DNA of 64,000 bases from Brasenia schreberi (Eukaryota; Streptophyta; Magnoliopsida; Nymphaeales; Cabombaceae): contig JAYKKT010000059.1 of the NCBI GenBank assembly GCA_036023115.1, positions 5,379,501-5,443,500 of the forward strand. The letters run 5' to 3'. Below, one piece after another: positions 5,236 through 63,203 of this stretch (its first letter is position 1; each line of letters begins with the position of its first letter). A program made the position numbers and the translations under genes. The notes under the pieces were generated by a model that saw only the letters and a program-made list of their open reading frames with translations, was not told the DNA's origin and did not search any database.

Positions 5236-5966
5236 GTAAGGATCTAACTAGATCCAGCTTGCCAATAAAAAGGTTTAATGGGTATTTACATGTCTTGAAT
5301 TTAATTTATTAAAAAGAAGCTATTTTTTATATTAAATGAGCAAGGGCTTGTTTCTTCAACTAATAAGCATCATCTAAAAGACTAAATTTTCCAGGTTTAA
5401 AGAGCCAGTTCTAGTTGAACTCATTTAGCCTGTTGCTTGTTGCATGCTCATCTTAAATGAGCAAGACAAGCTACAAAGCAGGTGAGAATCTAATGGGATG
5501 AGCTAGACATAACCCGTTCAGGATATCAAAGCAGGACGAGTGACTTGAAATTGCCGGTTCCGGTTCACCCCAAACTAGGAATCATAACTGAACCAGGTTC
5601 AACTCAAGTCTGGTTCCGAGTTCTCCAATTAGAAAAAGCAAAAATTAACCTTGAAAGATGGAAGAAAACTTATAAAATGGGATTGAAATAAGAGATTTGA
5701 ACTATTGATTCTGGTTTAGGCTCTACGGAGGAGGATCCACAACATTAAGTTGAGGGTTTCCTGTTGTGGGTCCGGTTAAACCACTTCCAAACTCGTCAGC
5801 CTTTGAAATTTTGGTTCAAACTTGGGTGCCGATTTTAAACCAGTCATGTCCATGCATACGTCCCTTCTTCACTAATGGGGACAACACTTGTATTGTTTTT
5901 ACCAATTGTTACATATTGCATCATATTATGTTACAATATTTATTTGTATTATATAATTACACCATA
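5236..5966. other. No gene; decayed MITE-like sequence
   Basis: Around 5545-5630 runs such as ccggttccggttc and gaaccaggttcaa resemble the interior of the hAT-like MITE at 24929-25247. Otherwise AT-rich with no recognised gene. Confidence 0.35.
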
Positions 5967-6170
5967 CAACAATAACAACTAAGCCTTTTCCCATACTAAT
6001 GGGATCGACTACATGGATTCTTTGTTTTCACATAACTTTATCATAATTTATAGAATTCATGGTAAATAAGTCTCATGAAGTTTTACGCTGACTATCAGAA
6101 ACCTAACACAACCCTCATTTATTCGAGCTTGGGATGGGTCATGCAAGGTGATCTCTTACATGAGGATAGT
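5967..6170 (-). mobile_element. Non-autonomous RTE derivative (head plus tail)
   Basis: A complete 204-bp insertion flanked by a perfect 20-bp target duplication, tattatataattacaccata, at 5947-5966 and 6171-6190. On the minus strand it begins with the RTE head (ctcatgtaagagatcacc) that also starts the long RTE copy at 16652. It runs through ttatttaccatgaattct and then passes at aattatga directly into the RTE 3' tail (gtgaaaacaaagaatccatg to the GTT-rich end). It has no coding capacity. The same head-tail junction is in the copy at 61037-61250, so both come from one internally deleted master. A SINE with an RTE-derived tail is an alternative description. Confidence 0.82.
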
Positions 6171-6316
6171 TATTATATAATTACACCATATAACACAATA
6201 TTGTTAATTTTATAATTTATATAACTTTTGTCTTTTTATACGAACTCTTTTCACTGAAGAATACAGTATATTGTACGTTGCTGTATCGAGTACATCGGTC
6301 CTTATACACCAGCTTT

Positions 6317-12460: not shown

Positions 12461-13438
12461 CTTTCTTGTTTTTATCATGTCATTGTTCAATTGTTAGTTT
12501 CGCGGCAACTCAGAAATGTTTGTTTCAACCCCTAATCTAAGAGCGGTGACAATGATATTCCGGAAAAACTATTTAAAATAGTAGATATTGCATAGCTTCA
12601 AAGATGACTAATTTCGCTAAAGCTAAATCTCTAAGCATTACTATGGTTAAAATTATCCACTACACGTTAGGCATCGAGTCTACCAAAATCATTAAAACTC
12701 CTACACAAACCTCATTATCTTTGGTCAATATGTTGTATCTTGTGTAATATTAACATTCAACTCCCAAAAAACAAGATCATGCTTCATCATTCAACAGTGC
12801 AAACTAATCTCAAGCTCACATAAATAAGAGGGCAGTGTTTGGTAGGTTGATTGGGTCAGCGTAAATCTCAGTCGGACACCTCATCATGGATTGTAAAACT
12901 ATGTATATTTGACAAATATATGATAAATGGACAATACTCTTGGGCAGATGGAATTGTTACTGAATAAAAGTGACTACAGAAGGTAACCATTTCTTTATTT
13001 AATCTTTGAAAAAATCGAATGTTGGACAATGCATGCAAGAATCGTTGCTGTGCATTGAATCTGTCGCAGATGGGTACGTTTCTTTAGTGACAGCAGAAGT
13101 AATAAATTAGCAGAAACGTTTAAATGTTAGAGAAAAACCGCACAATGACCACCCTGCGGCCTTTACTCCTCACTCTGGATCACCACCGTACGATGCATAA
13201 GGGGCTCATTCATTTCATCGCCTTGCTCGGTTGACGACATCATAATAACCCAATCATGGGGAATCGCATAATACTTGTTTTAGTGGTTAATATCTCAAAC
13301 ACAGGGGAAGCTTTGTAGCATGCATGGCACGAGGCTCATTAATAACAATGAAATTTCCTGATGCAGTCTCATCTTTTTTGTTTTTTTGTTTTTTTATAAG
13401 CAAGTTGGGGTTCTGCCCGACGAGATGCAAGATCCGAG
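12461..13438. other. No gene recognised
   Basis: The left part may still be degraded copia gag or leader sequence. No open frame or repeat is recognisable beyond that. Confidence 0.35.
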
Positions 13439-13579: not shown

Positions 13580-15196
13580 GCTCTGGATGTTGAACTCATG
13601 ACCTGCAACTTCTCACGAGAGAGTAGGGGCTCTTCGTGCCTAATTTTTGCCTCATGTTCTTTCACTACTAGATATATTTTACATGTTGAGCTCATGACCC
13701 AATTCTGGGTAAACCGGGACGAACGGTTTAAATCCTAAGGGTTTTCTCTTACTTAAAAGAGTGAGTGTAATTGAACTGAGTGGAAACTGGTCGATTCTTG
13801 TTACGATTCATAACTATCAGTTGGAGCCGGAACTGTTGGTTTAAAGCACCGGACAGTTCAGGTTTAGTTGATTTTTGGCCCCGATTCGGTTTCGGTTCAA
13901 AATTACATCATGGGGCTCCGGACCATAAACAAGCTCCCCATTTTCATACTCTTCGAATAATGACGCTACTCTTTATTAATGTTAAGTTCAGATCTACGCC
14001 TTTCAACCCGGGGTAAAACTAAAGATTTATATATTGAAAGCCAGAAGAAAATCAATTCTCTTCACACACTCGGCGCAATTTCCATCGATTCTTAGTTTCT
14101 CACGTTGATATATCTTCCATCGTTATATGGATTAAACTCAACAACAAGTTAAGAGTCACTATTCAAAGAACCCTTGTGCGTTAATTAGAAGACAAATGTG
14201 TTCATTGCTTAACAAAATATAGACTTTATTGTAGAAGCTGTTTCTTTCTCTTTCTTTTTCTCGAGTACAATGGAAAAGAAGTCAGATGTGCACCGTGGGT
14301 ATCGAGTTCATGACCTTCAACTTGTGGGTCGACCCATAGCCGATTGATCTGTTGCTCGAAGTCCTGATTTCAGAATAGCCAGAAAGTTTAGGATTGGATC
14401 AGGAAAATCTAAAATTTGAATATCAGACAAATCTACTGCATTAGGAAGTTACCCTTATTGCAAAGGTAGATCATGTACACGTAGAGAAAGAAACAGTGGG
14501 GCAGCTGGTGGGTGGCAATGCAGAAACCTGGGAAATGAATGAGAGGGAGTGCGCGCGCGCGCAAGCACACATGTCTCCATGTTTTCCTCAATCAGTTTAA
14601 ATGATATCATGCATTTTTGAATCTTAATTAGTTCTCCTTTAGGGTTCCGTCCGGACCTTTCCAAGTCCCCAATTAATACCTTCTGCTTCTCTACAAAATC
14701 CCATTGATAGTCTCATCTCTCTCACAAGAAATGAGATGAAGAAGAGAAAGAAATAGTCTGCGTTTTGAGGGGGATGTTGGCTGGCTCGAGGCCACACTGT
14801 GCATATATGGCTACCAATATGTATTGCTAAGGGTAGATGCTTCGGACCAGGCTTCATTCCCTTCAAACATTTCAGGCCAGCCTTGTCTATATGAAGCTCT
14901 TGAGAATGATGGAGGTTTCATTGTTCATTTCTTTCTTCTTTCGGGTGTACTTCTCGCCGAATGGCCAGGCGAAAGGCTTAATCAGTTGCGGGGAATGTTG
15001 TCTGGTTCAAGGCAATATGGATTTTGGGTGATCTTATCGATTCCTAAGTGACCTCGGACCAGGCTTCATTCCCCTCAACGACATCTCCCTTTCGACTCCT
15101 TCATGCTCACTCTGGAACGCTTGCTATGGTAATATCCCTTACATTTGCTGATTCTTGAGTGCTCTTTCATGGCTCTCGGCATCTTCAAGAGATATA
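13580..15196. other. No gene; SINE and MITE relics
   Basis: Holds SINE S2 fragments at about 13588-13630 and 14285-14345 (gggtatcgagttcatgacc, cttcaacttgtgggtcgac on +) and decayed GGTTCCGGTT-type MITE sequence at 13765-13900. Open frames around 14820-15050 have no recognisable domain. A phrase ggaccaggcttcattcccct-like occurs twice (near 14845 and 15057). Confidence 0.4.
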
Positions 15197-16604: not shown

Positions 16605-16651
16605 ATAACAACAATAATGTTTAGAATTTAGAATTCATGATAAATAAATCC
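16605..16651 (-). mobile_element. Antisense RTE-derivative scrap
   Basis: aacaacaataatg is followed by aattcatgataaataaatcc, the reverse complement of the RTE head segment ttatttaccatgaatt. It abuts the sense-strand head of the long RTE copy, giving a local foldback between 16628-16655 and about 16748-16775. Confidence 0.45.
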
Positions 16652-18204
16652 GACAAACTTTGTTCATGTAAGGGATCATCCTTGAATTGTTGGTCTCAGG
16701 CCTCGATAAAGGAGGAGGATTGCGTTAGGCGTCCGACAACAAGTGTAAAACTTTGTGAGACTTATCTACCATCGATTTTAAAATTATGAGTACACCCTCT
16801 TAGCGACAGAGTCAAAATGCAGTGAAAAGTAAGAGTCATTATATCTTCGTCCGAATATAGTAAATCAATTGGAGAGAGAGTTCTTATATCGTAGATAGGT
16901 GTGAGTAAAAAAGTTAGTTCCACTACATTGTCGCCTAAATGTAGTAAATAAGTTACAACAAGAGTCTTCACATTTTAAGAATGAATGGATGCAGAGGTAA
17001 GGAAGCTAATCCTAGATAATAAGATTCGTATTGGTACGGTAGATAATATGATTCACACAAATATTCAAATTTTATGTTTACAAAAAAGACAAAGTGGGTT
17101 AGAAAAAAAACAAAGAAAATTGAGAATACAAGTTTTAAATTATGGTACTCGGAAAAGAAAAAAGCATGGAATAGAGTTGGTATTATTATAAATAAAGATT
17201 TAAAGGATAATGTAGTAGACATACGATGATACGGTGACCAAATTATGATGGTGAAGTTAGTGTTAGGGCTAGAGGCTTTGAATATAGTTTGTGCTTATGC
17301 ACCTAAGTAAGATTGGAAGACAATATAAAAAAGGCTTTTTGAGAGGAGTTAGATAATATAACTCAAAGAATTCTACAAAGGAAGATTATTTGTTTAGGAG
17401 GAGACTTAAATGGATATATTGGTAAAGATGCATTAGGATATCAAAGTATTTAGGAAACTATAGTTTTTGGGATATAAATGAGAAGAGTATGGAGATTTTA
17501 AATTTTTTTATGACTTTTGATCTCTTTATACTCAATACAATTTTTAAAAAAATGAGATGAATATTTTAATTACTTATAAGAGTGTCTTATCACAAACACA
17601 AATTGATTATTTCTTTTGTAGAAAAAAAGATAGATCATGTTATAAAGATTGTAAGGTAATTCTAAGAGAAACCTTAACTACTCAACATCACTTTTAATAA
17701 TGGATTTGCAAGTAAAAAAATAGACAAAGAAGAATAGAGTTAATAGAATTATTTAGACTAGATGGTGGAACCTCAAATGTAAGAAAACAAATATATTTAA
17801 ATAAAAAGTTTTTCAAGGAGATGCTTAGAGTTATATAGGTATACCTTTTGATATGTGAAACAATATGGCTATACATAGTAGGAAAGTGACAAAAGATGTG
17901 TTAGGTGTATCTAAGCAAGGCCTACCAGCACAAAAAGAAGCTTGGTAGTGGAGTGAAATGGTGTAAGATAAAATCAAAACAAAGAAGACATGTTACAAAT
18001 TGCATTATATTGTAAAACTCATGAAGTTAATAAGAAAGCAAAGAAAGAAGCGAAAAAGGTTGTTAGTGAAGTAAAAGCCAAAATTTGGGAGGATTTATAT
18101 AAAATGCTTAACTCAAAAGAAGGTGAAAGAGATATTTTTAGGATAATTAAGACTAGAGATAAGAAAACTAAGGATCTTACTTTCATAAATACAAATTTGT
18201 TAAT

Positions 18205-18555
18205 CCTTTAAAAGTAAATGGAAGATCTTATTGGCTTTTGAAATATCAAAAAGCTATGGTTCTTTCTCATGAGCTTCTTTCTCCTTCCTCTTGGGGGCGA
18301 AGGAGCATTATAGATATCATGAGGTCCATGTGTGAACTCGACAGTCATGACTTTGCCTACCTAGTATCCTGCATCATATTTTCTACGTAGGAAATCAAAG
18401 CTTGTCGTTGATTACGCCTTAGATTTTTTTTTTGTTACACGATGTGTCTGGGATGCAAAAAAATGTATTTGACATAATCCACTTGATTAGGTAGTTGAAC
18501 CAGAGTAGGACAAAAAGATCTCTACAGTTTGAGCCTTGGTGAGTTGCATCTAGCA
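18205..18555. other. Unidentified insert inside RTE LINE
   Basis: RTE similarity stops after the DKKTKDLTFI segment and resumes near 18560 with a decayed YFxxLFNEN-like segment. The 350 bp between them is not RTE coding sequence; it includes a T-run at 18427-18435 and no recognisable domain. No flanking duplication was found. Confidence 0.5.
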
Positions 18556-19733
18556 ACGTGTAATGATATCAAAAATATATGAAAAAATAATTTTATAAGC
18601 TTTTTAATGAAAATAAAAATATTAGTATTACCTTAGGAGAGTTAGCTAAATCAGAAAAGTATATAAACCATAATTTCTATCGGTGTATTGAAAAGAATGA
18701 AGTCAAAGAAGCTCTTAAATATACGAAGGTTGGTAAAACTGTAGGACTAGACAATATTCCTATAGAAGTATGGAAAATCCAAGGAGAGATGAGCTCACTT
18801 GGCTCACAAGATTATTTAATGAAATATGGAGAACCCAAAAATGTTCGAGAAATGGAGAGCGAGTACAATTATACCTATATATAAGAAAAGAGACATTCAT
18901 AATTGCTCAAATTATTGAGGTATCAAGTTAATGAGTCACACTATAAAATTATGGGGAAAAATTATCAAACATAGGTTAAGACAAATATCTAGTATAATAG
19001 ATAACCAACTCAAATTCATGCCTGACATATCTACTATTAAAGCAATTCACCTATTGAGACTTTTTATAGAATATTTTATAGCAAAAAAAAAGAATCTTCA
19101 CATGATATTTATTGATTAGAAAAGGCTTACGATAGGGTGTCAAAAGATGTTTTTTGGAGAACTTTAGAAAAGAGAGTTATCTCATTGACATATATAAACC
19201 TTATAAGAGGCATGAATGATGGTAAAAAAAATTGTGTGAGAACCCATAAAGGAATGACAAACTCCTTTGAAGTTAATATTGGGCTACATTAGGGATCAAC
19301 TTTAAGTCCATATTTATTTATATTGGTCATTGATGAGTTAACAAAATATATTTAAGATGAAGTACCTTGATATATGTTATTTGGAGATTATATTGTGTTA
19401 GTGGATGAGCCTAAGGAAAAAGTTAATAGGAAATTGGAATTATGGAGAGAAATGTTAGAAAGTAATGGCTTTTGACTTAGTAGAACAAAGACAAACTATT
19501 ATGGAATGTAAGTTTGATCATTTGAGTACTTTAGATGACATAGAAATTAAGATTAACACACAATGCATCCCTTATAAGAAAGTTTTAAATACCCAGAGTC
19601 AATTTTTCAAAGTGATGGAAAAATTGATGGAGATGTTATATATAGAAATAGTGGTGATTGGTTAAAATGGAGAGGGGCATAAGGTATTTTGTGTGATAAG
19701 AAGATATCATTAAAATTAAAAGGTAAATATTAT

Positions 19734-19973
19734 AGAGCAGCAATTAGACCTGCTATGTTTTATAGTTCTTAGTGCTAGACATTTAATCATCAACACGTGC
19801 AAAACATTTCTGTAGAGCAACAATTAGACCTGCTATGTTTTATGGTTCTTAGTGTTGGACATTTAATCATCAACATGTGCAAAACATTTCTGTAGAGCAA
19901 CAATTAGACTTGTTATGTTTTATGGTTCTTAGTGTTGGACATTTAATCATCAACATGTGCAAAACATTTCTGT
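19734..19973. repeat. 80-bp tandem triplication inside RTE
   Basis: Three consecutive 80-bp units starting at 19734, 19814 and 19894, each covering the YRAxIRPAMFYGSxCW to QxMSV part of the RTE C-terminus. Since 80 is not a multiple of three, each extra unit shifts the frame. Confidence 0.95.
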
Positions 19974-20238
19974 AGTAGAAATGAATACGTTGAGATAGAT
20001 GAGTGGTCACACAAAGAAAGACCATATACGTAATAAGGTTATTAGAAGTGAATTGTGAGTAGCACTAGTAGAGGATAAAATGAGGAAAAATCATTTAGGA
20101 TGGTTTGAACATATAGAAAGATGACCGAAGGATGCTCCTATAAGAAGATATGAAAAATTAGATTGTAAAAATGTTAAAAGAGGAAGACGACGGCCACAGA
20201 AGTGTTGAAAAGAAACAATAAAGAATGATCTAGTCTAA

Positions 20239-20678
20239 CAAGTTCTTCTATGCATGCATTTGTATCCACATTTTTTTTTCTTTGTGTTTCTTAGAGAAAT
20301 TCAACTCATATAAGAGATCGTTCTTATAAAGGATTATAATAAAGAGGCATCATCTGAGCTTACCTAATTCCGTTGATTAACTTGTCATGTACTTCGATCA
20401 TGTGGATCATTTTTGTTAACTATTAACTTGTGCCAATGCTTTCATCATTTTGCTGGAGAAAACTCTACAGACTTTCTGGGTATGAGAGCTAACTTTTGTC
20501 TATTAAGGGGATTGCTTTACCTAACTTTGGATCTATCTCTACTAAATCCAGTTGCAGTTATTATGTTAAGCTCTTTACGAACTGCTGATAGCACAAAGAT
20601 TGCAGACTATGGAAAATGAAATAGTTGCTCAACTATGTTCAAACTATCTAATGCAATCTTTTCTATCGTCCACTCGGG
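20239..20678. other. No gene recognised
   Basis: No recognisable coding or repeat content. Confidence 0.35.
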
Positions 20679-20824: not shown

Positions 20825-21308
20825 AACCCGGGGTTAGGCACCATCATGTCTGTATCTGTGGAAATATTTGCATAAGACCACACACATATATAATCACTTG
20901 TAAACTTATTATATAATGGGGTACATGTCCTTAGCCATGTGATATTTTGTAGTCATTCTTAAAGCAATTAAAGAGATGCATGGAAGCAGGAATTTTGAGC
21001 AGCAACAAGATCTTTTCAACACATTGAATGCGTTGTGAGGATAGAGGAGTAGTAAGTGTCAGGTCTTTTCTATATAGTCTATAGATATCCAAAAGGGTTA
21101 CGGGAAACGAGAGATTCCGTGCACATATACACACAATTTTTCAGAGTTTGTCGTTATGGGAGCCATGACTTTGTGTGGTTCAGACTCGGGCCTGCACGTC
21201 TGCATTTATTAAGAAGGCAATGGAGGTAGCCATCCTGACGTTTCTTGGAAAATGAAAAACTCATCAACCTACACTTTATCTCTCCACTCTCGTTGTCTCC
21301 ATATCTCT

Positions 21309-21309
<1 letters not shown>
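20825..21309. other. No gene recognised
   Basis: Unique-looking sequence without a recognisable gene. Confidence 0.35.
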
Positions 21310-21351
<42 letters not shown>

Positions 21352-21364
21352 AGAGAGAGAGAGA
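21310..21364. repeat. (TA)n(GA)n compound microsatellite
   Basis: About 19 TA units followed by seven GA units, the reverse complement of the TC-then-TA arrangement elsewhere in the window. Confidence 0.95.
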
Positions 21365-21650
21365 GGAATTTTTATAAGTATATAAAGGGAAAGGAAAGAA
21401 ACAACGTAGTCAAAAGACATGTTATGTATGAGAGAGAGGCTATTCTTAGCCAAAAGAAATAAGCAAATTCCTGAAAGAAGCTGCCTTGTCAAAAGGCATC
21501 TCTTGTGAGCAACTCTCTCTCAAGCACAGATTTAAGTTCGGCCCAAATGGAAGAAATGGAAAACCTGACAAATTAACACTGCACCTTCAAGGACTTTAAT
21601 ACTCAACAAACATAACGCACAGTTGAATTTGCGAGCTATAATACTGGGTT

Positions 21651-23729: not shown

Positions 23730-23735
<6 letters not shown>
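23099..23735. other. Upstream region with MITE and SINE relics
   Basis: A hAT-MITE-like stretch lies at about 23277-23430 (tagggctgatcaacgaaccg and later gaacgagccgagc words). A SINE S2 copy lies at about 23525-23600, reading on minus with an A-box-like TAGCTCACCTGGCTA and a B-box-like AGTTTGATACC. No gene was recognised. Confidence 0.45.

Positions 23736-23797
<62 letters not shown>
23736..23797. repeat. (TA)n microsatellite
   Basis: About 31 uninterrupted AT/TA units. Confidence 0.97.
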
Positions 23798-23798
<1 letters not shown>

Positions 23799-24928
23799 CC
23801 TAAGGTCGGCTACACAAGACAGTCACTATTGTGCTCTATCATGTATCGTATAGCAGTTTACTCCGACCTCGGTGTGGGTTTGACCTTTCCATAGTGGGTC
23901 TCCAGTATGGATGAAGGAGAAGAACAGCCAGCTTAAAACTCGGTCGAATATGTTAATATGGACTCTAGAAATGAAATATAATCAATTCTCTTGATAAAAA
24001 TTTTCGAAAAGACATATATGTATGTATATTTATAAGTATATATATATATAATATTACATATATACATAAATATATTACAGATATATACATATATGTATAA
24101 ATATACATATATGTATATTATATGTATATAGAGAGAGAATCTGCATTTAAGGAACCAATATCTACGTCGTCTGATTGGTATGATCAACAGTGGAAATTTA
24201 AATAAAAATATTATTTTAACCAGTATAAAACTTATTTGAATCCATTAATATGATTTAGAAATCAAAATGAATCAATTCTCCTAATAAAAAAGTTATATAA
24301 AAGGACAAGAGAAACAACTCAAGTTTTTACACTATGAATCAAAAGACCATGTCAATTCCAGATTTACTCTGAACTTTGATAACAGAATTCACACTTAACA
24401 AATCGTATTTACACAACTTAAACTGGAGAAGATTTAATGAAGAAACTGCAGGAGGAGTGACAACACTCCTCGCTACGGGTCGACTCAAAAGAACCTTCAA
24501 GTTGAACCTCAGAGTTTGATAGCCGGGGCACACACATCTGCTAGAGTTCTGCCCTAATCCCAGCATGCCTTCAATAGCATTTATCAAAGAAATTGTGAAG
24601 AAAACAGGAATCAAATAGTGTTCCTATACTAGGCAAGTCCTCACTGAACAGTGGATGAGTCCCTGTCTCCAAAACCCAGAAGAAACCAAGGTTCAAGCAC
24701 TTTTAGTCGACATTTCGTTGCGGTTGGCTTATAATGTTTAAACATGATTTAAAAAATCTTAAAGTCAATTATTGGCTAATCCGTTACTTGTTTAGAGGAA
24801 AATTATAAGCTTTCTTGCAGATTTTGGCGTACGACCAACAGAAACCTTTCTTTCCCCTTATTATTTACTCAATTTAGCAACTGGGGCTTTCATGGGAGAT
24901 GCCCTTTTCTAGTATGATGTCATTGGGC
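23798..24928. other. No gene; AT-rich palindromic tract
   Basis: 24015-24140 is an irregular TATA/TATG/TACATA tract with many short palindromes, ending in a GA run. The rest has no recognised gene. The phrase aatcaattctc(t/c)t(a/g)ataaaaa occurs twice (near 23981 and 24270). Confidence 0.45.
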
Positions 24929-33300: not shown

Positions 33301-33962
33301 GATCGAGTTATACTCTTAACAACATGATAGCATCACGAGCATCTCCCTGATTTCCAAGGAAGAAATCGACCTTCTCGATCGTCACAAGAAGAAAAAGAAG
33401 ACAAAGATGGGATTCCGGAGGGTGACCCCTTCTCTATCTTATACTGAACTTCTAAAGATGACTGCAGAGACTGATCAAGAGGAAACCTCTTCAAGAAAGA
33501 TCATGTCTTCTGAAGAGGCTACGGAGTCTGTCACAGAATCCGCAAAAGGAAGCGAGATTCGTTTCGATTGTCTTTCAAACCTGTATCCCAACTTGTTACT
33601 ATGGAAACTTGAAGAGTTTTTCTCTCTTACTGGTTGAAAGTTGAATATAGGGAAATCTTCAATTTTTTTTCTAAATATTAACCTCTAACGTTATTGCGGT
33701 TGGTGGGGAGTTCGACTCCAACAGGGTGCTTGTAAAAAAAGAAAAAGTGACAGAGGCTGACGACCCTAGGCATTATCTAGGATTTTCCATCTTATTTTTA
33801 GCTTCAAGAAAACAAAAATATGAACATATTTTGGAGAAGGCTCCAAAGCCAATGAAAGATATCTCTAAGGATGGCAATAGTGACCCGACCCCCTGCAGAG
33901 TCGGACCAATCAGGTTCACATTCAGGTAAACACACATATATAACACATACATACACACGCTT

Positions 33963-33993
<31 letters not shown>

Positions 33994-34010
33994 GTGTGTG
34001 TGTGTGTGTG
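33963..34010. repeat. (TA)n(TG)n compound microsatellite
   Basis: TA units to about 33987, a short transition, then TG units to 34010. Confidence 0.95.
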
Positions 34011-34439
34011 TATGCATGACCTGTTTTTGCCATTTACCACCTGGTACCGGTTAGGTTACAGGAGAGAAAACCGGAAACCGCAAGGTTTCATGAGCTGGTA
34101 CGTGAGGTGTCATGTACCACCTCATATAGTTGTATACCTGCCTTCATCCCGCGCTGTTGATTGCCGAACCACACTAGTTGTGAAGTTGGATTAGCCTTTT
34201 AAAACCCAATTTCCTTTTGCGGACATGGAGAACATACTAGGAAGCCTAATACACGCATATGCATACATCATTGCAAGGCAATGGGTGGTTTTATTCTGCA
34301 TAATGCAAAAATAACCCAGAATAAATTTATCATTGTCTTGCTATTTTGGGTGGACACGGGACATTTGGTCCTCTTCGTGTCTGCTTTTCATGTGTAGTGT
34401 TGCTAATTTTTTCCCGTTTGGTACATCAGAAGGATGAAG

Positions 34440-46900: not shown

Positions 46901-49900
46901 AGATGGAATTGTATATTACCAAAAGAGGCAAAACTATGGAAACAAATGAGAATCAATTACAAACTATTTAATAACCACAATGCAATCGTAGGATATAGTT
47001 AAAATCAGTCCTCATGGTGCACTTGTTTAATAATTGAAGAATGCTATGTTACAAGTCTACTAGATATTTAGCTATTTCCCCTTTACAACATGATTCCACG
47101 TGTTTTATCAACTGATAAGTATAAACTACAGAGTTTTGGGTAATCTATACAACAACTGAGCCTTTTCCCATACTAGATGGGGTCAGCTACATGGATTCTT
47201 TGTTTCCATAGAGCCTAATCATGTGCTATGCTAATGGATAATGTGTCATACTAGTAGTTAACTCAACATCAGCTAAATCATTCTTTATTCTTTCTTTCCA
47301 ATACTTTTGTGGCCTTTCTCTACCTTTTTAACAATTTTACAATCTAGTTTCTCATATCTTCTTACCAGAGCTTCCTTCAATCATCTTTCTACATGTCCAA
47401 ACCACCTTAAATGATTTTTTCTCATTTTATCATCTATTGGTGTCACTCCCAATTTGTTTCTAATAACCTTATTACATATATGGCCTTTTCTTGTGTGACC
47501 ACTCATCCATCTCAACATCTTAATTTCTGTCACAGATATCTTTTGTAGATGTTGATCATTAATTGCCCAACACTTCGAACCATAAAATATAGTAGGTCTA
47601 ATTATTGCACTATAATATTTATCTTTCAACTTTAATAGTATCTTCTTGTCACATAGAATACATGATGCACCTCTCCATTTTAACTAACCTACATTAATTC
47701 TATGCATAACATCTCTATCAATTTTTCACTGCTCTAAACAATTTGTCATTGAATGAAGAATTAATCAGCAAAATAACTCAGACATTGAAAGGAAGAAGAA
47801 CTAGGTTGGTCGGCTGCTTCATTCCTGCCGCCACCTTCTTTTCATTTCTTATTATCGTTCCAACCCTATTGACAGCTAACTAATATATAAACCTAATCTA
47901 ACTTAAGGTACTAATATGCCCTTAATTAGTACTAACCTTTACATCATTAATCACGGGTCCTAATGGATCAGAATCTGATCCATTAGGATCCGAATTACAA
48001 GAGACAGATCCTAATTACAAGCGAGACATAATACGACACATTTAACTATACTAATTTATGATATAGACTCATACTAACAACTAATTATCTCCAACACTCC
48101 CCCTCAAGTTGGGTGAAAGATGGATGTTACACCCAACTTATTGCATAATCTCTGAAGTTGATCTCTAGTAACTGCCTTAGTCAACATATCTGCACATTGA
48201 TATCTTGATTGCACATGTTATAACTGAAATTCCTTTGCATATACACTGTCCTGTATAAAGTGATAATCAATCTTGATGTGTTTTGTTCTTTCATGATATA
48301 CTGGATTTGAGGCTATTTGTATCGCTGCTTTGCTGTCACAGAATATAGGTATAGGTTTTCCAGCAAATAAGTCCATTTCCATAAGTAATTATTGCAGTCA
48401 TTTTCCTTCACACATACCTGATTCTATTGCTCTGTATTCTGCTTCAGCTGTTGATCTTACTACCACTGACTGTTTCTTATTTTTTCATGATACTTTATTA
48501 CCTCCAATTAATGTTATATATCCTGTTGTAGACTTTCTATCCTCTGTTGAACATGCCCAATCAGTATATGTATAAATGTCAATGTCAGTGTGGCCATTAG
48601 ATGTGTAAGTGATCCCATGTCCTGGAGTTGTCTTCAGATATCGTAATATGTGAAACACAACATCTATGTGATGTTTTGATGGTGATTGCATAAATTTGCT
48701 TACTATACTCACGGCATAAGCTATATCTTGACGTGTGATTGTCAGGTATATCAATTTTCCCACCAATTGTTGATATTTAATTATATCAACTCTTTTAGCT
48801 CCATCTTCCATCTGTAACTTGTGATTTACATCCATTGGAATATATGTAGGTCTACAATTCTCCATCTTAATATCTTGCAACAGGTCTAAAGTATATTTTC
48901 TCTTATTCAGAAAGATATCTTTACCTGAATAGGCTACCTCAATGCCTAAAAAATAATGTAGTCTTCTAAGATCCTTAGTATCAAATAACCGATGAAGATC
49001 CTTCTTTAACTTTTGAATTTCTTTAATGTCATCACATGCTACAATAATATCATCTACATATACTAATAGTAGTGTTAATTTTTCCCCCTTTTTGAAGAAT
49101 AGTGTATGATCACTTACACTTTTTTGATATCTCAAATTTATAATACTCCTGTTGAATTTCTCAAACCACACTCTTAGTGATTTTTTAATCCATAGATAGC
49201 CTTTTTTAATATGCATACCTTTCTTTCAGGATTTGGATATCAAGGTGGTAACTCCATATAAATTTCTTCTTTAAGCTCTCTTTGTAGAAAAATATTTTTC
49301 ACATCCAGTTGCCACATTACCCAATTTCTTTGAACTGTAATACTGATAATAACTCGTATAGATGTAAGTTTTGCTACTGGTGCGAAACCTTGCTTTGTAC
49401 CTTTCTAATGAACCTTCTGCTTTGTATTTGATTGTATACACCCACTTGCATGAGACTGTTTTTCTGTCTTCAGGTAAGTCACTGAACTGCTTGAATTTCA
49501 GACTTCAGAGCTTCAACCCACTGCTTGTCTTTAGATGCTTCAAAGTAGCTTTTAGGAATTTGATGCATCTCAGCCTTTAGCACAAAATTATAGTAACTTT
49601 CTGATAATTTATTATAGGAAATAAATTGAGAAATTGGATGCTTACGACATGATCTTTTCCCTTTTCTGAGTGCTATGGGAACATCTGAATCATCTAAGTC
49701 CTTATCTCTTGTTTCTTCTACACTTTCCCTCGAATCAGAAGATCATGTTTCTCCTCCTTGATTTATTACTTCTTTTTGTCTATCCGTAAATATATTTCTC
49801 TCTCCCTTTCTGTATATTTGAATTATGTTTTCTTTTGGGATTCGATCTGTATTTTCTTCCTCTGATTCTTGACTCACACTGATTCGTGGTAGAACAACTG

Positions 49901-52900
49901 TTTCTTCAAAGATAGAGTCAGATACCTCATTCAACCTTTTATAGTATGGAGTAGTCTCAAAGAAGGTTACATCCATAGAAATATATCTTCTATGAGAGTT
50001 AGGATCGTAGCAAATGTATCCTTTCTTTTCACAAGAATATCCAATGAAAATGCATTTTATTGCCCTTGGATCAAACTTATCTCTGAATTGTTGATGAACA
50101 TGCACATAACAAACACAACCAAATATTCTGCGAATAAGATGAAATGAATTATCTCCAGGTTTAATTACCTTGAAAGGAGACTTTCCTGCAAGGGTCACAG
50201 TCGGAATTCTATTCATGATATATACTGCTATAAGAATCGCTTCAGGCCAGAAATATTTTGGGACATTGTGTTTAATAAGTAAAGTTCTAGCGATTTCCAA
50301 GATATGTCGATTACCATTTTGTTGTGGTGTGTGAGGACAAGCTGGGTGATGTATGATGCCATGAGAACTCAGAAAGGATTTAAAAGATGAGAAAAATATT
50401 CTTTTGCATTATCACTCGCAAAACATGAATTGTTTTTCCAAACTGATTCTTTATTTGGAACAAAAGGTTTGAAAAGCATTAAATAACTTCGAAACGATCT
50501 TTCATTAAAAATAACCAAGTACATCTTGAAAAATCATCAATAAAAGTAACAAGTACTAGCTGCCAATGCTCTTTTCTGTCTTAGAATCTGATTTCCAGGT
50601 AAGACATATAATCCATTGCATAGTTCACCACGTCCAAAGATTCTTCCCGTCTTCAAATCCTAAAAAACACAGTCATATGGAGAGAAAGTAACTGTCCAGT
50701 TCATGTCTCTAACCAATGAACTTACTGAAAGTAGATTTACTGAAAATTCTGGAATATATATCACTCAGTTAAGCCTGAGATTATCTCTCTAAATTGTTCC
50801 TTTCCCTTCCATCGGAATCAAAGAACCATTTGCTACTTTTACATATTAAGGAGTTGAAGCCACTTCATATTAGACTTATTTCCTACCATATGAACGATAG
50901 CTCCTGAATCTATTATCCAATTAGAGAAAACCGTAGAATCTTTAAGAGAGTAGTTACCGCTAATACTATAGAAAGTAGGAGGACTTAATTCTGTCTTTGA
51001 TGAGGAGGTTGAAGGTTGATCCCGTAGACGTGTTTCAATCTCTGCAAGCTGTTTCTTCAAGTTCGCCATTTCATCTATAGGATTCTTTTATGCTTTCTTC
51101 TCAGATACTGTTGCCACATGACTGCCATAATCTTTGTATTCTGTGGATTTTCTGCCATAAACTTTATATTTTGGAGGTTTCTCGATAATTTTCCAATAAT
51201 ACTCCCGTGTGTGTCCTCTTTTTTCATAATGTGTGCACTGTAATTTGTTCTTATCATCATAATTTTGATTCATTCCTCTTCCTCTACCAATAAATGCAGA
51301 TTTCTCAGCCTGTATATGTTCACCTTTCTCTAAATTCTTTCGATCTTCTTTCTTTAGTAGCAGTGAATATTTTGTTGCAAGATATGGAAGTTCTTCCTTG
51401 CTTAAAATATTCAACTTGATTGATTCGTATTCTGATGAAATTCCCTAGAGTAAATCAAACACTTTTCTAATTTCACCTTCAGTTGTTCTCTCCTTTACAC
51501 AGTGGTTGCACTTATTTTCCACAATAAGTCTCTGTTCATTCCAGAGTTTTTGTAATTCTCCAGAGTATTCACTGACTGATCTGGTTCCTTGGCGGCATTT
51601 TCTTATTTTTTCAATAATCTCATATTCTTTTGCTATATTTCTTTGTCTGGAATAAGCTTCTTCCATTGCAGACCAAATTTCAGTTGCTGATTCCATATAC
51701 ATAAAAGTCTTAATAGAAGGGTTTATAGATTGAATTAGCCATGAGCTGACGAGAGCATCATCTTTAGACCATCTTTCATAATCTGCACTGCTTCCTTCTA
51801 AAGTAGGTGGACTCTGTCTGATAATAGATGCCTTTCCTCTCGATCGTAGCACAAGTTCAATAGACCTAGCCCATTCTCTGTAAATTCTTCCATCTAGGCG
51901 GATATTTGTAATTTGGAATGGTTCTACCTTTTGATCATTTCCATATATAGACGATAATGATTCTTCTTTCAATCTTCCTTTCATGTTGATTCACACATGC
52001 TTGAAACTAGAATTTCTTTCTTCAAATAGATTGATAAAACAGAGTCTGTGTGATATTGTATCAGTTTATTTGCATTTGCACTTTGCTGCAAATATTTCTG
52101 TATATACTAACTCAATCTATACTGTGTCTACTTGTAGGTCACTCTTGATTATGTAATACAAGAATCAAGATTCTCAATGACTGATTTGATTTCAGTCCAC
52201 CACAACTTCAAGGTATGTCGATGATTGCTGACTTATATGATGGCGCAGAAAAAACTAAATTTGTAAGTTGTGCACAATACCTCCAAGGTATGTCGATGCC
52301 CTTACTTATAATGTTTATTTCTCCTCTGAAGAAATCAGTGAACTGGTTCAGATAAATATCCATGTCTGATTCAACAAGTACCACAACTGATTCAACAATA
52401 TAAATCTGATAAACTTCAACCTGATTGATTATTCCATGACTACAACCCTTAATAACGTGATTTGAATCTGTGATTCGATTCACAATCGGCTGATTCAAGA
52501 TACTCTCAACCTTCTTGCAGTGTGTTATAGACTTGCACGTTGTTTGATGGAGTATTTCAAATTTTTCTCATTAAACTTTTAAAGGACTAACACTTTACTT
52601 ACTTGGAATCTTTTTCCAGGAATGAATCAATGCGACAGGCTGCTGTATTTGCGTTCAAGGCTCTGATACCATGTTATTGAATGAAAAATTAATCAGCAAA
52701 ATAACTCCGACATTGAAAGGAAGAAGAACTAGGTTGGTCGGCTGCTTCATTCTTGCCGCCACCTTCTTTTCATTTCTTATTATTGTTCCAACCCTAATGA
52801 CAACCAACTAATATATAAACCTAATCTAACTTGAGACAAATCCTAATTACAAGAGAGACATAATACGACACATTTAACTATACTAATTTATGATATAGAC

Positions 52901-58900: not shown

Positions 58901-61900
58901 CATGATGATTTCATCCATAAAACTGAATTTAAAAGATTGAAATACAATAAATCAAGCCATGATTGAATCAAGAAAGCAGTGGCCCATCATCTTGGTTGTC
59001 GTTTGCATTTTTCTTTATTCTGTTCTAACTACTCTAAAACCTAATTACAATTCCCAGTGTTTATACTAATACTAATCTAATTTAAAAGACACAAATGCCC
59101 TTAATTAAGGACCAGATTCTCAATGGATCAGACCCGATTCTCAATGAATCTGATCCATTGGGACCCAAACACTTGAACATATTTGAGATACAAAATAGAC
59201 TCAAAACATAAAAGAAAAACAAGACTTTAAGTCGATACTTGATCTCCAACAGATCTCTCTTACGTGAATCCAAATTGGTTCTTTGTTATACTCGATACTT
59301 GTCTCAACTTACATTCAATAATTCTTTCTCATAACTTCGGAGTATGGTCGATCAACTTGATGCCCTCATAATTTACACAATTCTAAATATCTCCCTTGTT
59401 CTTGTATATAGGTATAAGTATACTCTCCCACCATTCCTCAAGCATCTTTTGGTTTCTCCATATTTCATTAAATAGTCTCGTAAGCCATTTTTTTATAATC
59501 TATACTACTTAAATAACTACTGCAGAGAGCAAAGCAAACAAAGGTCGGACCTCAAATCAGTACTAACATAGAGAACGATTTTCATTTTTTGGGTTATGCT
59601 CTCAGCCTTCACTCTTTATATATATTCAGGTTCCCCAAGGTCTTCTAGACACTACTGCTTACTCCATGCAGATGTGAAACATAAACTCAAAACAACCAAA
59701 TAGGACCACCATCTTTTAAGGAAAAAGAAAATGATGACATCAACATGTGGCGAGCATAGAATACATAAAAGCTATAAGTAGATAGCAGAAAGAGCAACCC
59801 TACTAAGTAGTTACAAGCTAATACAAATGATACGTAATCACTTTCACTAAAATAAACTTAGTACAGGTTTCATACCTGACTTCATTGCAGTATGTGTTCC
59901 TTTTATTTTAGGAACATTTAAGAAGCCAGCTGAGCATCCTATAAGTGCTCCTCCAGGAAAAACAGGATACGGAACTGACTGAAAATTAAAGACTAGCATC
60001 AAACTTGTCTACAAGAGAACCATAAAAGGAACGAATAAAAGACAACACACACTTTCATGTACCTGGAAACCACCTTCATTTAAGGTCCTGGCACCGTACT
60101 GAAGAACAGTTCCACCTTCTAATAAAGGCCTGATGATTGGATGTTGCTTGAGTTTCTAAGGGATAAAAGGATTCTTAGACAAAGAAAAGGGAATGCAAGT
60201 GGAAAATAGACGAATGACAATTGTGAGGGTCATTTAACCTGGTAATAATGACCTCAGATTCAGATTGCCTTGGAATGAAAACAAAATACAAAAGAAAGTA
60301 GAAAAAGTATATAGCCCATGCCTTATAAATGAAATGTTGGAGACTCGGCTAGAAATCAGTAACTTATAGGTCAGCTATCAACACAAGGATGGAATAATTG
60401 CAATAAATTAAGTAACTACTAATGAAACATCCAAATGTATGAAATAATTAACGCAAATGTTGGTGGATAATTTGACAATTGGCATGCAATCATGTAGATC
60501 AAAAACTAATGAGTGCAACACTTGGTTGTTATAACTTAAAAGCGTTGAGCACAGTTAGCCCCTTCGGAGCCCTTTAGCAGTAAATCCACTTATGTATAGC
60601 ATCATTGTTTAGCAAATTACTTTATTTTATTTTCCATTTACTTAACAAGACACATAATATAAGGCTATAAGCAAATATACCTCTATCAGAGTTCATTAAA
60701 AAAAGTTTAAAATAGGAAAAACTACACAAAGTACCTTGTGCTTTGACCATTTTTCATGTTAGTTCCTATGAATGGAAAAGTTATCTTGGCTACCTTGTGG
60801 TTTTCACCAATAACCAAATTAGTCACAAATGCCTAACGCCATATACTTAACCCCAGTTGGTGCATCAGACTTCAGTTGCCACATCAGGTGGCCATGTCAA
60901 CTTATATATAATATTATACTTAAATATTAGTTAATATTAGTATATTACATTTAAATATTAATAAATGTTAAATATTCTTTAGTATTAGTAATTAGTGCAT
61001 GTTAATTTTAACAGTACTAACTTTATATTATTAATAACTTTGTCCATGTAAGGGATCACCCTTGCATGGCCGGTCCCAAGCCCGGATAAAGGAAGAGGGT
61101 TGTGTCAGGCTTCCGACTGCCAACGTAAAACTTTATTGAACTTATTTACCATGAATTCTAAAAATTATGATAGGGCTTTGTGGGAACAAAGAATCCATGT
61201 AGCCGACCCCATCTACGATGGGAAAAGGCTTAGTTGTTGTTGTTATTAAATTTATATTATTAATATTTAATAATGATGTGGCTATTGAGTCAGCAGCCAT
61301 GTCATGTGAAACGGACTTCCACGTCATATTCAGGTAATGCAAGGACTAACCTAATAGATGACAAAAACCTCAAGATATCACAGTGCAAACTTTAAAATAC
61401 ATGGAACAAATTGATAAATGCACAAACCTCATGATAGTTACTTGAAGTTTTCTCTAAAAGATAAAACTCTAAAGATTTAAAAGATCAACTTTTATGTTTA
61501 AATAAAAAGTTTGAATTTTGTGATCCACTACTTTTTTATGTGTCCATATATCTAATGCATTTGTTTCCATATGTCTAATGCATTTGTTTGACTTAATATC
61601 TTTAAGATTCATATAAAGAGACAGGGAATTACATTATCTTCAATTTTTCTAAAAAAATCAATACCTTGTGAAAATAATTTCCCTTAATGGGCATCCTTGA
61701 CCATACTTGGACACTTAATGACATTCTTTTTTGAAATTATAATGAACTTGAGCATTTAAATTAATACACATGAGATAAATTATTAGTTTTCATGGTACTT
61801 GTGTTCTTTAACAACAACAACAACAAAGCCTTTTCCCATACTAGATGGGGTCGGCTACGTGGATTCTTTGTTTGCATAGAGCCCTATCATGTGCTCTTGT

Positions 61901-63203
61901 GTTCTTTAAAATTTTAAATATAATTTTTTCAACAAATTTACAAAATTTATGATACTTATGATTAGACTATTATTTGAAGAATCAGTCTCCATTTAAGTTT
62001 TGCGAATTATCGAGGTATCAAGTTAATGAGTCATACTATGAAATTATGGGAAAGAAATATTGAATGTAGGTTAAGACAAGTATTGATAGGGTGCCAAGAG
62101 ATGTTCTTTGAAAAACGTTAGAAAAGAGAGGTATCCCATTGACATACATAAATATTATAAGAGACATGTACGATAGTGCAAAAACATGCGTGAGGACTCA
62201 TAAAGGAATGACAGAGACAAACTTCTTTGAAATTAAGATTGGGTTACATGAGGGATCAACTTTAAGTTTATATTTATTTATATTGGTCATTGATGAGTTA
62301 TCAAAACATATTCAAGATGAAATACCTTAGTATATGTTATTTGCATATGATATTATGTTAGTGGATGAGTTTAAGGAAAAAGTTAATAGGAAATTGGAAC
62401 TATGGAGAAAAACGTTAGAAAGTAAAGGCTTCCGACTTAGTAGAACAAAGACAGAATATATGAAATGTAAGTTTGATCATTTGGGTACTTCAGAGGATAT
62501 AGAAATTACAACAACTAAGCCTTTTCCCATATTAGACGGGGTCGGCTACATGGATTCTTTGTTTCCACAGAGCTCTATCATGTGCCTCAGAGGATATAGA
62601 AATTAAGATGAAAAAATTGATTGAGATGTTACACAGAATTAATGCCGATTGGTTAAAATAGAGAAGGGCATCAGGTATTCTATGTGATAAGAAGATACCA
62701 TTAAAGTTGAAAGGTAAATATTATAAAGCAACAATTAGACCTACTGTGTTTTATGGTTAACGTAAACGAAGATGTTGAGATGGATGAGTGGTCACATAAG
62801 GATAGACCGTATACATAATGAGGTTATTAGAAATCATTTAAGATGGTTTGGATATATAGGAAGAAGACAAAGGGACGCTCCCGTAAGAAGATATGAAAAA
62901 TTAGATTATGAAAATGTTAAAAGAGGAAGAGGACGACCACAAAAGTGTTGGAAAGAAACTATAAAGAATAATCTAGTTTATATTGAGTTAAATGCTAGCA
63001 TAGCACATGATAGGGCTTTGTAGAAACAAAGAATCCATATAGCTCACCCCATCTAGTATGGGAAAAGGCTTAGTTGTTGTTGTAGAAGTAGTAGTCATGA
63101 TTTAAGTTTCATAATGCTATGGGAATTCTATACATTTGCTATTTACTATTTAAATTAATTCATATTCATGTAGCCGACCCCGTCTAGTATGGGAAAAGGC
63201 TTA

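What the first reader, a model, noticed from the sequence alone, without database searches (positions are those of the whole stretch)
5967..6170. Non-autonomous RTE derivative made by internal deletion at a 4-bp microhomology
Seen: the elements at 5967-6170 and 61037-61250 start with the same head as the long RTE copy (near 16655) and end with the RTE 3' tail. In the long copy the head continues aattatga-gtacacc; in full tails the sequence is cacatga-taggg; in both short elements it is aattatga-taggg (or taaag). The join therefore lies at a shared ATGA. Both copies have long, nearly perfect target duplications (20 and 15 bp). Inference: one RTE lost its whole coding region through ATGA microhomology, and the 0.2 kb product was then copied repeatedly in trans, like a SINE born from its LINE partner.
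Basis: partly seen in the sequence, partly recalled or inferred. Interest (0 to 1): 0.75.

Follow-up and report, generated by a model that had tools for sequence, protein, structure and literature searches.

The report
Ribozyme-headed mini-retrotransposons born from RTE
A plant genome carries a large family of 0.2-kb jumping elements that are the two ends of a larger jumping element (RTE) stuck together, and their front end looks like a self-cutting RNA (a twister ribozyme) that would trim the RNA exactly where the inserted copies begin.

Summary
Both window elements are real, with target duplications of 20/20 and 15/15 bp and the ATGA join. The 1.06-Gb genome holds 1,479 exact copies of the 16-base join against 0 for the reversed control. 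In 39 fetched copies plus the two window copies a 12-base join is exact in 36 of 41; the other five have one substitution each. RTEs carry the same head at their own 5' end, many flanked by target duplications.
The head is not tRNA, 7SL or 5S. It is a type-P1 twister ribozyme (Rfam RF03160: 47.7 bits for B, below the 67.2 cut-off; 67.3 bits for the best of 55 genomic matches). The predicted U|A cut lies where inserted copies begin (AAC...).
Best reading: a SIDE-like element (ribozyme head plus RTE 3' tail), released by self-cleavage and copied by RTE protein in trans. Corrections: the last ~16 codons of the RTE frame are kept, and short forms with other joins exist. Twister at RTE 5' ends was announced in one sentence in 2020 (PMC7761336). 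I found no report of the short derivative. Cleavage is untested.

The parts
61036..61250 (+). Short element B (twister head + RTE tail)
   Evidence: 82.5% to A; target duplication; 40 other matches in the genome, one of them partial
5967..6171 (-). Short element A, decayed copy
   Evidence: 6171 is the shared A of AAC
61036..61103 (+). Twister ribozyme of B (model match 61031-61103, whose first bases are target flank); predicted cut between 61035 (U) and 61036 (A)
   Evidence: RF03160 47.7 bits, E 6.8e-10, E 1.7e-7 over the whole window, alignment; 29 of 31 conserved core letters
61022..61036 (.). Left target duplication of B
   Evidence: 15 of 15
61251..61265 (.). Right target duplication of B
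   Evidence: 15 of 15
6171..6190 (.). Target duplication of A on its 5' side
   Evidence: 20 of 20
5947..5966 (.). Target duplication of A on its 3' side
   Evidence: 20 of 20
61167..61170 (+). ATGA join in B
6041..6044 (-). ATGA join in A
61171..61241 (+). RTE tail of B: last ~16 codons of the RTE frame, CCCAT..ATGGG hairpin, TTG repeats
   Evidence: in 12 window tails the hairpin pairs in 96.7% of 60 cells against at most 55% when slid, no two-sided changes
16656..20240 (+). Long RTE copy L: head, 5' leader, RT remnants and endonuclease-like fragments (the latter recognised by eye only); 3' tail missing
   Evidence: RVT_1 weak match E 0.0089, no Pfam match for the endonuclease part
16656..16789 (+). 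Head of L, decayed twister (17.3 bits; 22 of 31 core letters)
16606..16661 (-). Piece of an older short element or head, inverted, into which L may have inserted
   Evidence: 35 bp, E 7e-5; E 0.008; the rest is a by-eye reading
61812..61895 (-). Tail-only RTE insertion starting AGCACATGA, 14-bp target duplication (ends approximate)
62508..62586 (-). Tail-only RTE insertion starting GGCACATGA, 19-bp target duplication (ends approximate)

Best explanation
The 0.2-kb element is a Short Internally Deleted Element (SIDE) of a plant RTE retrotransposon. It keeps about 135 bases of the RTE 5' end and about 75 bases of its 3' end, joined at a shared ATGA. [Shown by sequence.] The first ~68 bases are a type-P1 twister ribozyme. 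[Shown by covariance-model match and conserved core; activity inferred.] Transcripts reading into a copy from outside would cut themselves at the U|A step just upstream of AAC, giving an RNA that starts AAC. RTE protein would bind the 3' tail (small hairpin plus UUG repeats) and copy the RNA by target-primed reverse transcription, so new copies begin at AAC and are flanked by duplications, 13-25 bp in the sampled short copies. [Copy ends and duplications shown; protein recognition inferred from the shared tail and from known RTE/SINE pairs.] The head is therefore a processing module, not a tRNA-type promoter. The ATGA join most likely happened once, in an older RTE lineage, and gave a family of probably a few thousand copies; other short forms with other joins arose separately or by later deletion.
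For: Join: 1,479 exact copies against 0; 36 of 41 exact. Copy starts: AAC in 36 of 41 short elements and in 17 of 17 RTEs from the 20 best twister hits, two of the 17 after re-anchoring. Target duplications scoring 10 or more: 21 of 34 AAC-starting short copies, control 0 of 34, 20 of the 21 ending within 2 bases of AAC; RTEs 12 of 15, 10 of the 12 within 2 bases, no swap control run for RTEs; L069 is a clear RTE case, 16 of 16 on both sides. Twister; genome 55 matches of 62 scored (85,391 first-look candidates), best 67.3 bits over the 67.2 cut-off, 0 of 14 control genomes. Structure pairs form in 92.4% of 1,232 cells against 31-52% when slid. Between short-element and young-RTE majorities the twister part differs at 2 of 67 sites, the rest of the head at 11 of 66, p = 0.009. 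RTE heads of older lineages share the short element's head type and read on TTATGAG.. where the short element has TTATGATAGGG. The cut site (U-A) and dispensability of stem P1 are stated in PMC6154101 (passages).
Against: No cleavage was measured. B scores below Rfam's gathering cut-off, as do 54 of the 55 genomic matches; A (14.1 bits) and L (17.3 bits) are near chance. Covariation in the twister does not exceed shuffles (5 two-sided cells, reached by 130 of 500). P3's second pair is unpaired in 13 distinct rows, which I read as the young RTEs (U-U or C-U). 13 of 34 AAC-starting short copies and 3 of 15 RTEs gave no target duplication at the score used. Only 11 of 34 short copies have U before AAC, the background rate, so most sampled copies lack the conserved residue 5' of the cut. 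The sampled short copies were picked by likeness to B, the RTEs by twister score or likeness to L. That RTE protein copies the short elements is inferred.
Confidence: 0.86

Rival explanations
1. The 5' end at AAC is set by a transcription start (own promoter in the head), and the twister is a relic or has another role such as helping translation.
For: Only about a third of sampled short copies have the conserved U upstream, yet the family spread widely; activity is untested.
Against: The predicted scissile bond falls exactly at the copy boundary in short elements and RTEs alike, and the twister part is the conserved part of the head.
Confidence: 0.12
2. The join was made by reverse transcriptase jumping from the tail of one RTE RNA to the head region of another during copying, not by deletion in DNA. 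(This is a rival for the origin of the join only; it fits the best explanation otherwise.)
For: Two of the five 5'-truncated RTE insertions with a target duplication found in the window start at the same base, 5 bases before the join (RGCACATGA), suggesting a stop or jump point; the R2 SIDE paper names template jumps as one possible route (PMC3414825, passages).
Against: Four shared bases fit either route; the R2 SIDE authors call DNA recombination the more likely route for theirs; the sample is very small.
Confidence: 0.4
3. A tRNA- or 5S-type SINE (such as the TS or Au families) that borrowed an RTE tail.
For: Size, TTG tail and shared RTE 3' end are as in tobacco TS (PMC3747384, passages).
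Against: No tRNA in the window by ARAGORN and no tRNA, 5S or 7SL match in the Rfam scans; the head is the RTE's own 5' end.
Confidence: 0.02
4. RTE acquired its head from a pre-existing short element, not the reverse.
For: A and B share the head with RTE; the head tree does not make the short elements one clade (3 label changes).
Against: Diverged RTE copies carry head plus leader (40 of 40 scored), and PMC7761336 states that twister is conserved at RTE 5' ends generally.
Confidence: 0.04

Closest known systems
R2 SIDEs of Drosophila (PMC3414825; passages read)
   Same: 5' self-cleaving ribozyme of the parent joined to its 3' tail by loss of the middle; propagated in trans by target-primed reverse transcription
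   Different: HDV-like ribozyme, site-specific rDNA insertion and rDNA co-transcription there; here a twister, dispersed insertion, a plant RTE parent and at least 1,479 copies
NARTc / RIME of trypanosomes (PMC4035085; abstract and passages)
   Same: short internally deleted versions of L1Tc/ingi LINEs keeping the 5' ribozyme region
   Different: HDV-like ribozyme in the Pr77 region; different LINE clade
Twister at RTE 5' ends (PMC7761336; passages)
   Same: one sentence: truncated but catalytically competent twisters conserved at the 5' end of RTE retrotransposons, cited as in preparation
   Different: that sentence says nothing of short derivatives, joins or copy ends
Mammalian SINEs with an RTE 5' end: Bov-A2, MAR4, RTESINE1, RTE1-N1_LA (table in PMC3747384, passages)
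   Same: both ends from one RTE
   Different: animals; no ribozyme mentioned in the passages I saw
Tobacco TS SINE (PMC3747384, passages)
   Same: about 100 bases of RTE tail and TTG repeats
   Different: tRNA-related head with A and B boxes
Plant retrozymes (PMC4918200; passages)
   Same: non-autonomous plant retroelements with a small self-cleaving ribozyme
   Different: hammerhead in LTRs, circular RNA, LTR mobilisation

Membership tests
Twister ribozyme, type P1 (RF03160) | covariance-model match at the curated score | tested here: met
   met by 1 of 55 genomic matches, an RTE head, 67.3 against cut-off 67.2; the other 54 lie below it, and so does B itself, 47.7
Twister ribozyme, type P1 (RF03160) | conserved core and double pseudoknot | tested here: met
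   B keeps 29 of 31 core letters; P2, P3, P4 and both pseudoknots pair in 84.5-97.6% of cells
Twister ribozyme, type P1 (RF03160) | pair-supporting covariation within this family | tested here: not met
   no excess over shuffles in close copies
Twister ribozyme, type P1 (RF03160) | self-cleavage at U-A | not testable with these tools
   copy starts coincide with the predicted product end
SIDE (short internally deleted element) | 5' ribozyme plus 3' end of one autonomous element | tested here: met
SIDE (short internally deleted element) | insertion by target-primed reverse transcription (target duplications, 3' repeat) | tested here: met
   21 of 34, control 0 of 34
SIDE (short internally deleted element) | transcribed as part of a host transcript, not by pol III | not testable with these tools
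   no RNA data
Plant SINE (tRNA-derived, pol III) | tRNA-related head with A and B boxes | tested here: not met
   a loose B-box-like GGTCCCAAGCC (by eye) is part of the twister core
RTE clade retrotransposon (parent) | RT frame, conserved C-terminus, TTG tail | tested here: met
   all 120 listed homologues (of 1,215 found with a window RTE frame) match window copies by tblastn, L among them, mostly named plants or unnamed metagenome contigs; ADP within the last 40 residues in 35 of 120. Clade assignment rests on the tail, the C-terminus and recalled knowledge of plant RTEs; no RT tree was built

The most novel reading that the evidence does not exclude
Twister-headed short elements are a recurrent, ribozyme-driven class of plant retroelement. 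Because the cut lies inside the motif, each new copy leaves the upstream U and the first P1 strand behind and must have its ribozyme completed by the target site. About one landing site in three supplies the U (11 of 34 copies), so the insertion site would decide whether a copy can become a source. Plant RTEs give birth to such elements repeatedly, and this would also explain what many plant twisters are for.
Probability: 0.4. Interest if true: 0.78.

Novelty: new variant of a known kind. Interest (0 to 1): 0.7.

Why it matters
[quoted passage not shown] This case contradicts the second statement for one family, if SINE-like elements of this kind are counted, and gives the first a concrete role that a simple cleavage assay can test: cutting the retrotransposon RNA at the exact base where copies begin. 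It also suggests that a ribozyme plus a tail is enough for a thousand-copy element without a tRNA promoter.

Tried and rejected
1) tRNA, 5S or 7SL head: no match. 2) Au SINE: rejected as a relative; Au-like SINEs end in short T tracts (PMC3747384), this one in TTG with an RTE tail; no Au sequence was compared. 3) My own idea from A and B that insertion favours sites rebuilding P1 and U(-1): dropped, since in the 34 AAC-starting copies of the B-like sample U(-1) was 11, all-four P1 pairs 4 and inner three 7, against background 0.318, 0.058 and 0.117; a mild excess of P1 pairing remains and I do not rely on it. 4) U before AAC in 16 of 18 best twister loci is expected from selection by the model, which scores that base; not used. 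5) Splicing as the origin of the join: no AG before the tail side (by eye). 6) Prokaryote and viral collections: no viral match (in one search two pattern matches, neither confirmed) and two short chance matches in bacterial contigs. 7) A Pfam poxvirus match at E 0.12 on an RTE fragment is taken as chance. 8) Head tree: bootstrap not settled; used only for the young-RTE group (98/95) and, weakly, for the place of L061 and L064. 9) L057 has a head without RTE leader or tail at the expected place. Of the 55 twister places, all fetched, class 33 as RTE, 9 as short, 6 as other (L120 among them reads as RTE by eye) and 7 with no head match by blast; the 7 were not followed and the 6 only glanced at.

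Not obtained: the pattern count for other joins (TTGTCGGACTT..AAAGAATCCATGTAG) and the count of RTE-type joins; the search machine did not answer.

Full report
What is in the window. Two short elements, A (5967-6171, minus) and B (61036-61250, plus), match each other over nearly their whole length at 82.5% and have exact target duplications of 20 and 15 bp (the last A of each is shared with the element's AAC). Their first ~135 bases match the start of the long RTE copy L (16656-20240), their last ~75 bases match ten other RTE 3' ends in the window. The join lies at ATGA, which L's head and an RTE tail share exactly; 4 or more shared bases occur at 2.1% of random joins. L has RTE-type remnants (weak RVT_1) but no 3' tail, so L alone could not prove the parent relation.

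What the tail is. In the RTE copies the tail is the end of the reading frame (..HDRALWKQRIHVADP[I/V], stop) followed by a very short untranslated end and TTG repeats. So the short element keeps about 16 codons. The stop codon sits in the loop of a small hairpin, CCCAT-loop-ATGGG, that pairs in 96.7% of 60 cells in 12 window tails, against at most 55% when slid; there are no two-sided changes and no excess over shuffles. Known RTE/SINE pairs share their 3' tail, which is taken to recruit the LINE enzyme (PMC3747384, passages).

What the head is. An Rfam scan of B at low threshold gave type-P1 twister ribozyme, RF03160, 47.7 bits, E 6.8e-10 (1.7e-7 over the window), below the gathering score of 67.2. 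A and L score 14.1 and 17.3 bits, near chance, as decayed copies. B keeps 29 of 31 conserved core letters, L 22, A 23. In the genome the same model finds 55 matches among 62 scored, the best 67.3 bits, just above Rfam's own cut-off, and none in 14 control genomes. On 61 heads (55 distinct) the twister pairs, including both pseudoknots, form in 92.4% of 1,232 cells against 31-52% when slid, but covariation does not exceed shuffles. Between the majorities of short elements and of young RTEs, the twister part differs at 2 of 67 sites and the rest of the head at 11 of 66 (Fisher p 0.009).

The genome test. B finds 41 matches from 40 scored of 4,854 first-look candidates; I fetched 39 (left out were B itself and a 119-bp partial match next to L041). 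With A and B, 36 of 41 carry AAATTATGATAG exactly and the other five have one substitution each. The exact 16-mer CAAATTATGATAGGGC occurs 1,479 times, reversed control 0; at roughly 7% divergence per site that would mean a few thousand copies (my estimate). Target duplications scoring 10 or more, 13-25 bp long and exact in 10, were found in 21 of 34 AAC-starting copies, and in 0 of 34 when 3' flanks were swapped; 20 of the 21 end within two bases of AAC. Divergence from the majority is 0.025-0.106, median 0.056, in this sample chosen by likeness to B.

The parent. Of the 20 best twister hits, 17 are RTEs with head, leader, RT and a tail starting 3.04-3.31 kb downstream, starting AAC in 17 of 17, two after re-anchoring, with target duplications of 13-19 bp in 12 of 15 tested (no swap control for these). 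L069 is a textbook case, 16 of 16 bases abutting AAC and the TTG repeats. The L head plus leader finds 40 of 40 scored matches in the genome, L included. In 12 fetched ones the start is AAC in 10; several have the short element's own head type (about GACTTAT.TACCATGGATTCTACAAATTATGA), and 11 of 12 read TTATGAG, mostly TTATGAGCATTG, where the short element has TTATGATAGGGC. I infer that the short element came from an older RTE lineage, of which L is a decayed member.

Other short forms. Among the 55 twister places, 9 are short. One has the ATGA join (L088; no target duplication found). Seven join further into the tail, six of them through an A-rich stretch (L061, L064, L095, L097, L113, L119) and one not (L102); all seven have target duplications, 14 to 22 bp and exact in five of them; several have lost most of stem P3, and four (L064, L095, L097, L102) share a core change (UAAA to AAAA). 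One, L105, joins a young-RTE-type head to a longer stretch of RTE frame, with a 13 of 14 duplication. I read L105 as an independent birth; the group of seven may be a separate birth or a later deletion within the ATGA family (the two placed on the head tree, L061 and L064, lie among short elements with modest support). So births probably recur, while one join dominates the count I could make. The twister list favours intact cores and is no fair sample of joins.

How it works. Twister ribozymes cut at a U-A step, and stem P1 is dispensable for cleavage (PMC6154101, passages). In this head the step is U|AAC, and copies begin AAC. I infer that a transcript entering the element from outside cuts itself there, and that the resulting RNA, carrying the RTE tail, is copied by RTE protein. 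The 5' junction often shares AA with the target (8 of 21 duplications extend two bases), as expected if the second strand is started by annealing. The base before AAC is supplied by the target and is U in 11 of 34 copies, the background rate, so only some copies would be able to cut well; this predicts that the landing site decides which copies become sources. That step is untested.

What is known. Twister at RTE 5' ends was announced in one sentence, as work in preparation (PMC7761336, passages). R2 SIDEs and trypanosome NARTc/RIME are the same kind of derivative with HDV-like ribozymes (PMC3414825, PMC4035085; passages). Mammals have SINEs with both ends from RTE (PMC3747384). My paper searches listed no report that I recognised as a twister-headed short derivative of plant RTE; I read passages of nine papers, not the rest of the listings, and the library lacks most subscription journals and all preprints. 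I therefore call it a new variant of a known kind.

Noticed in passing
window 14764-14867 and 14985-15079 (+): Two MIR166 microRNA precursors in tandem, 75.3 and 79.4 bits against a cut-off of 60.
   Followed up: no
window 19733-19975: An 80-bp piece inside the long RTE copy is present three times in tandem, about 92-96% alike.
   Followed up: no
window 12804-12903 (+) and 23883-23972 (+): Two strongly decayed head pieces (E 3.3e-7 and 4.8e-4) with no RTE tail seen next to them; possibly remains of older short elements or RTEs.
   Followed up: partly
window 61812-61895 (-) and 62508-62586 (-): Two independent tail-only RTE insertions with target duplications start at the same base, five bases before the join of the short element; a preferred stop of the reverse transcriptase?
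   Followed up: partly
L064, L095, L097, L102: Short elements with TAG-containing 3' repeats (TTGTAGTTGTAG; a single TTGTAG in L097) and a shared change in the twister core (UAAA to AAAA); three of the four have exact target duplications.
   Followed up: partly
L095, L102, L119, L105; L062, L068, L070, L071: Twisters in which stem P3 is shortened by different deletions, in short elements and in RTEs, with the core largely intact.
   Followed up: no
window 48485-58199 (-): Copia-type retrotransposon frames (two frames tested: RVT_2 in one, integrase in the other).
   Followed up: no
window 33930-34019, 21284-21371, 23730-23807: Stretches (probably simple AT-rich repeats, not inspected) that score as animal microRNA families at low threshold; probably not microRNAs.
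   Followed up: no
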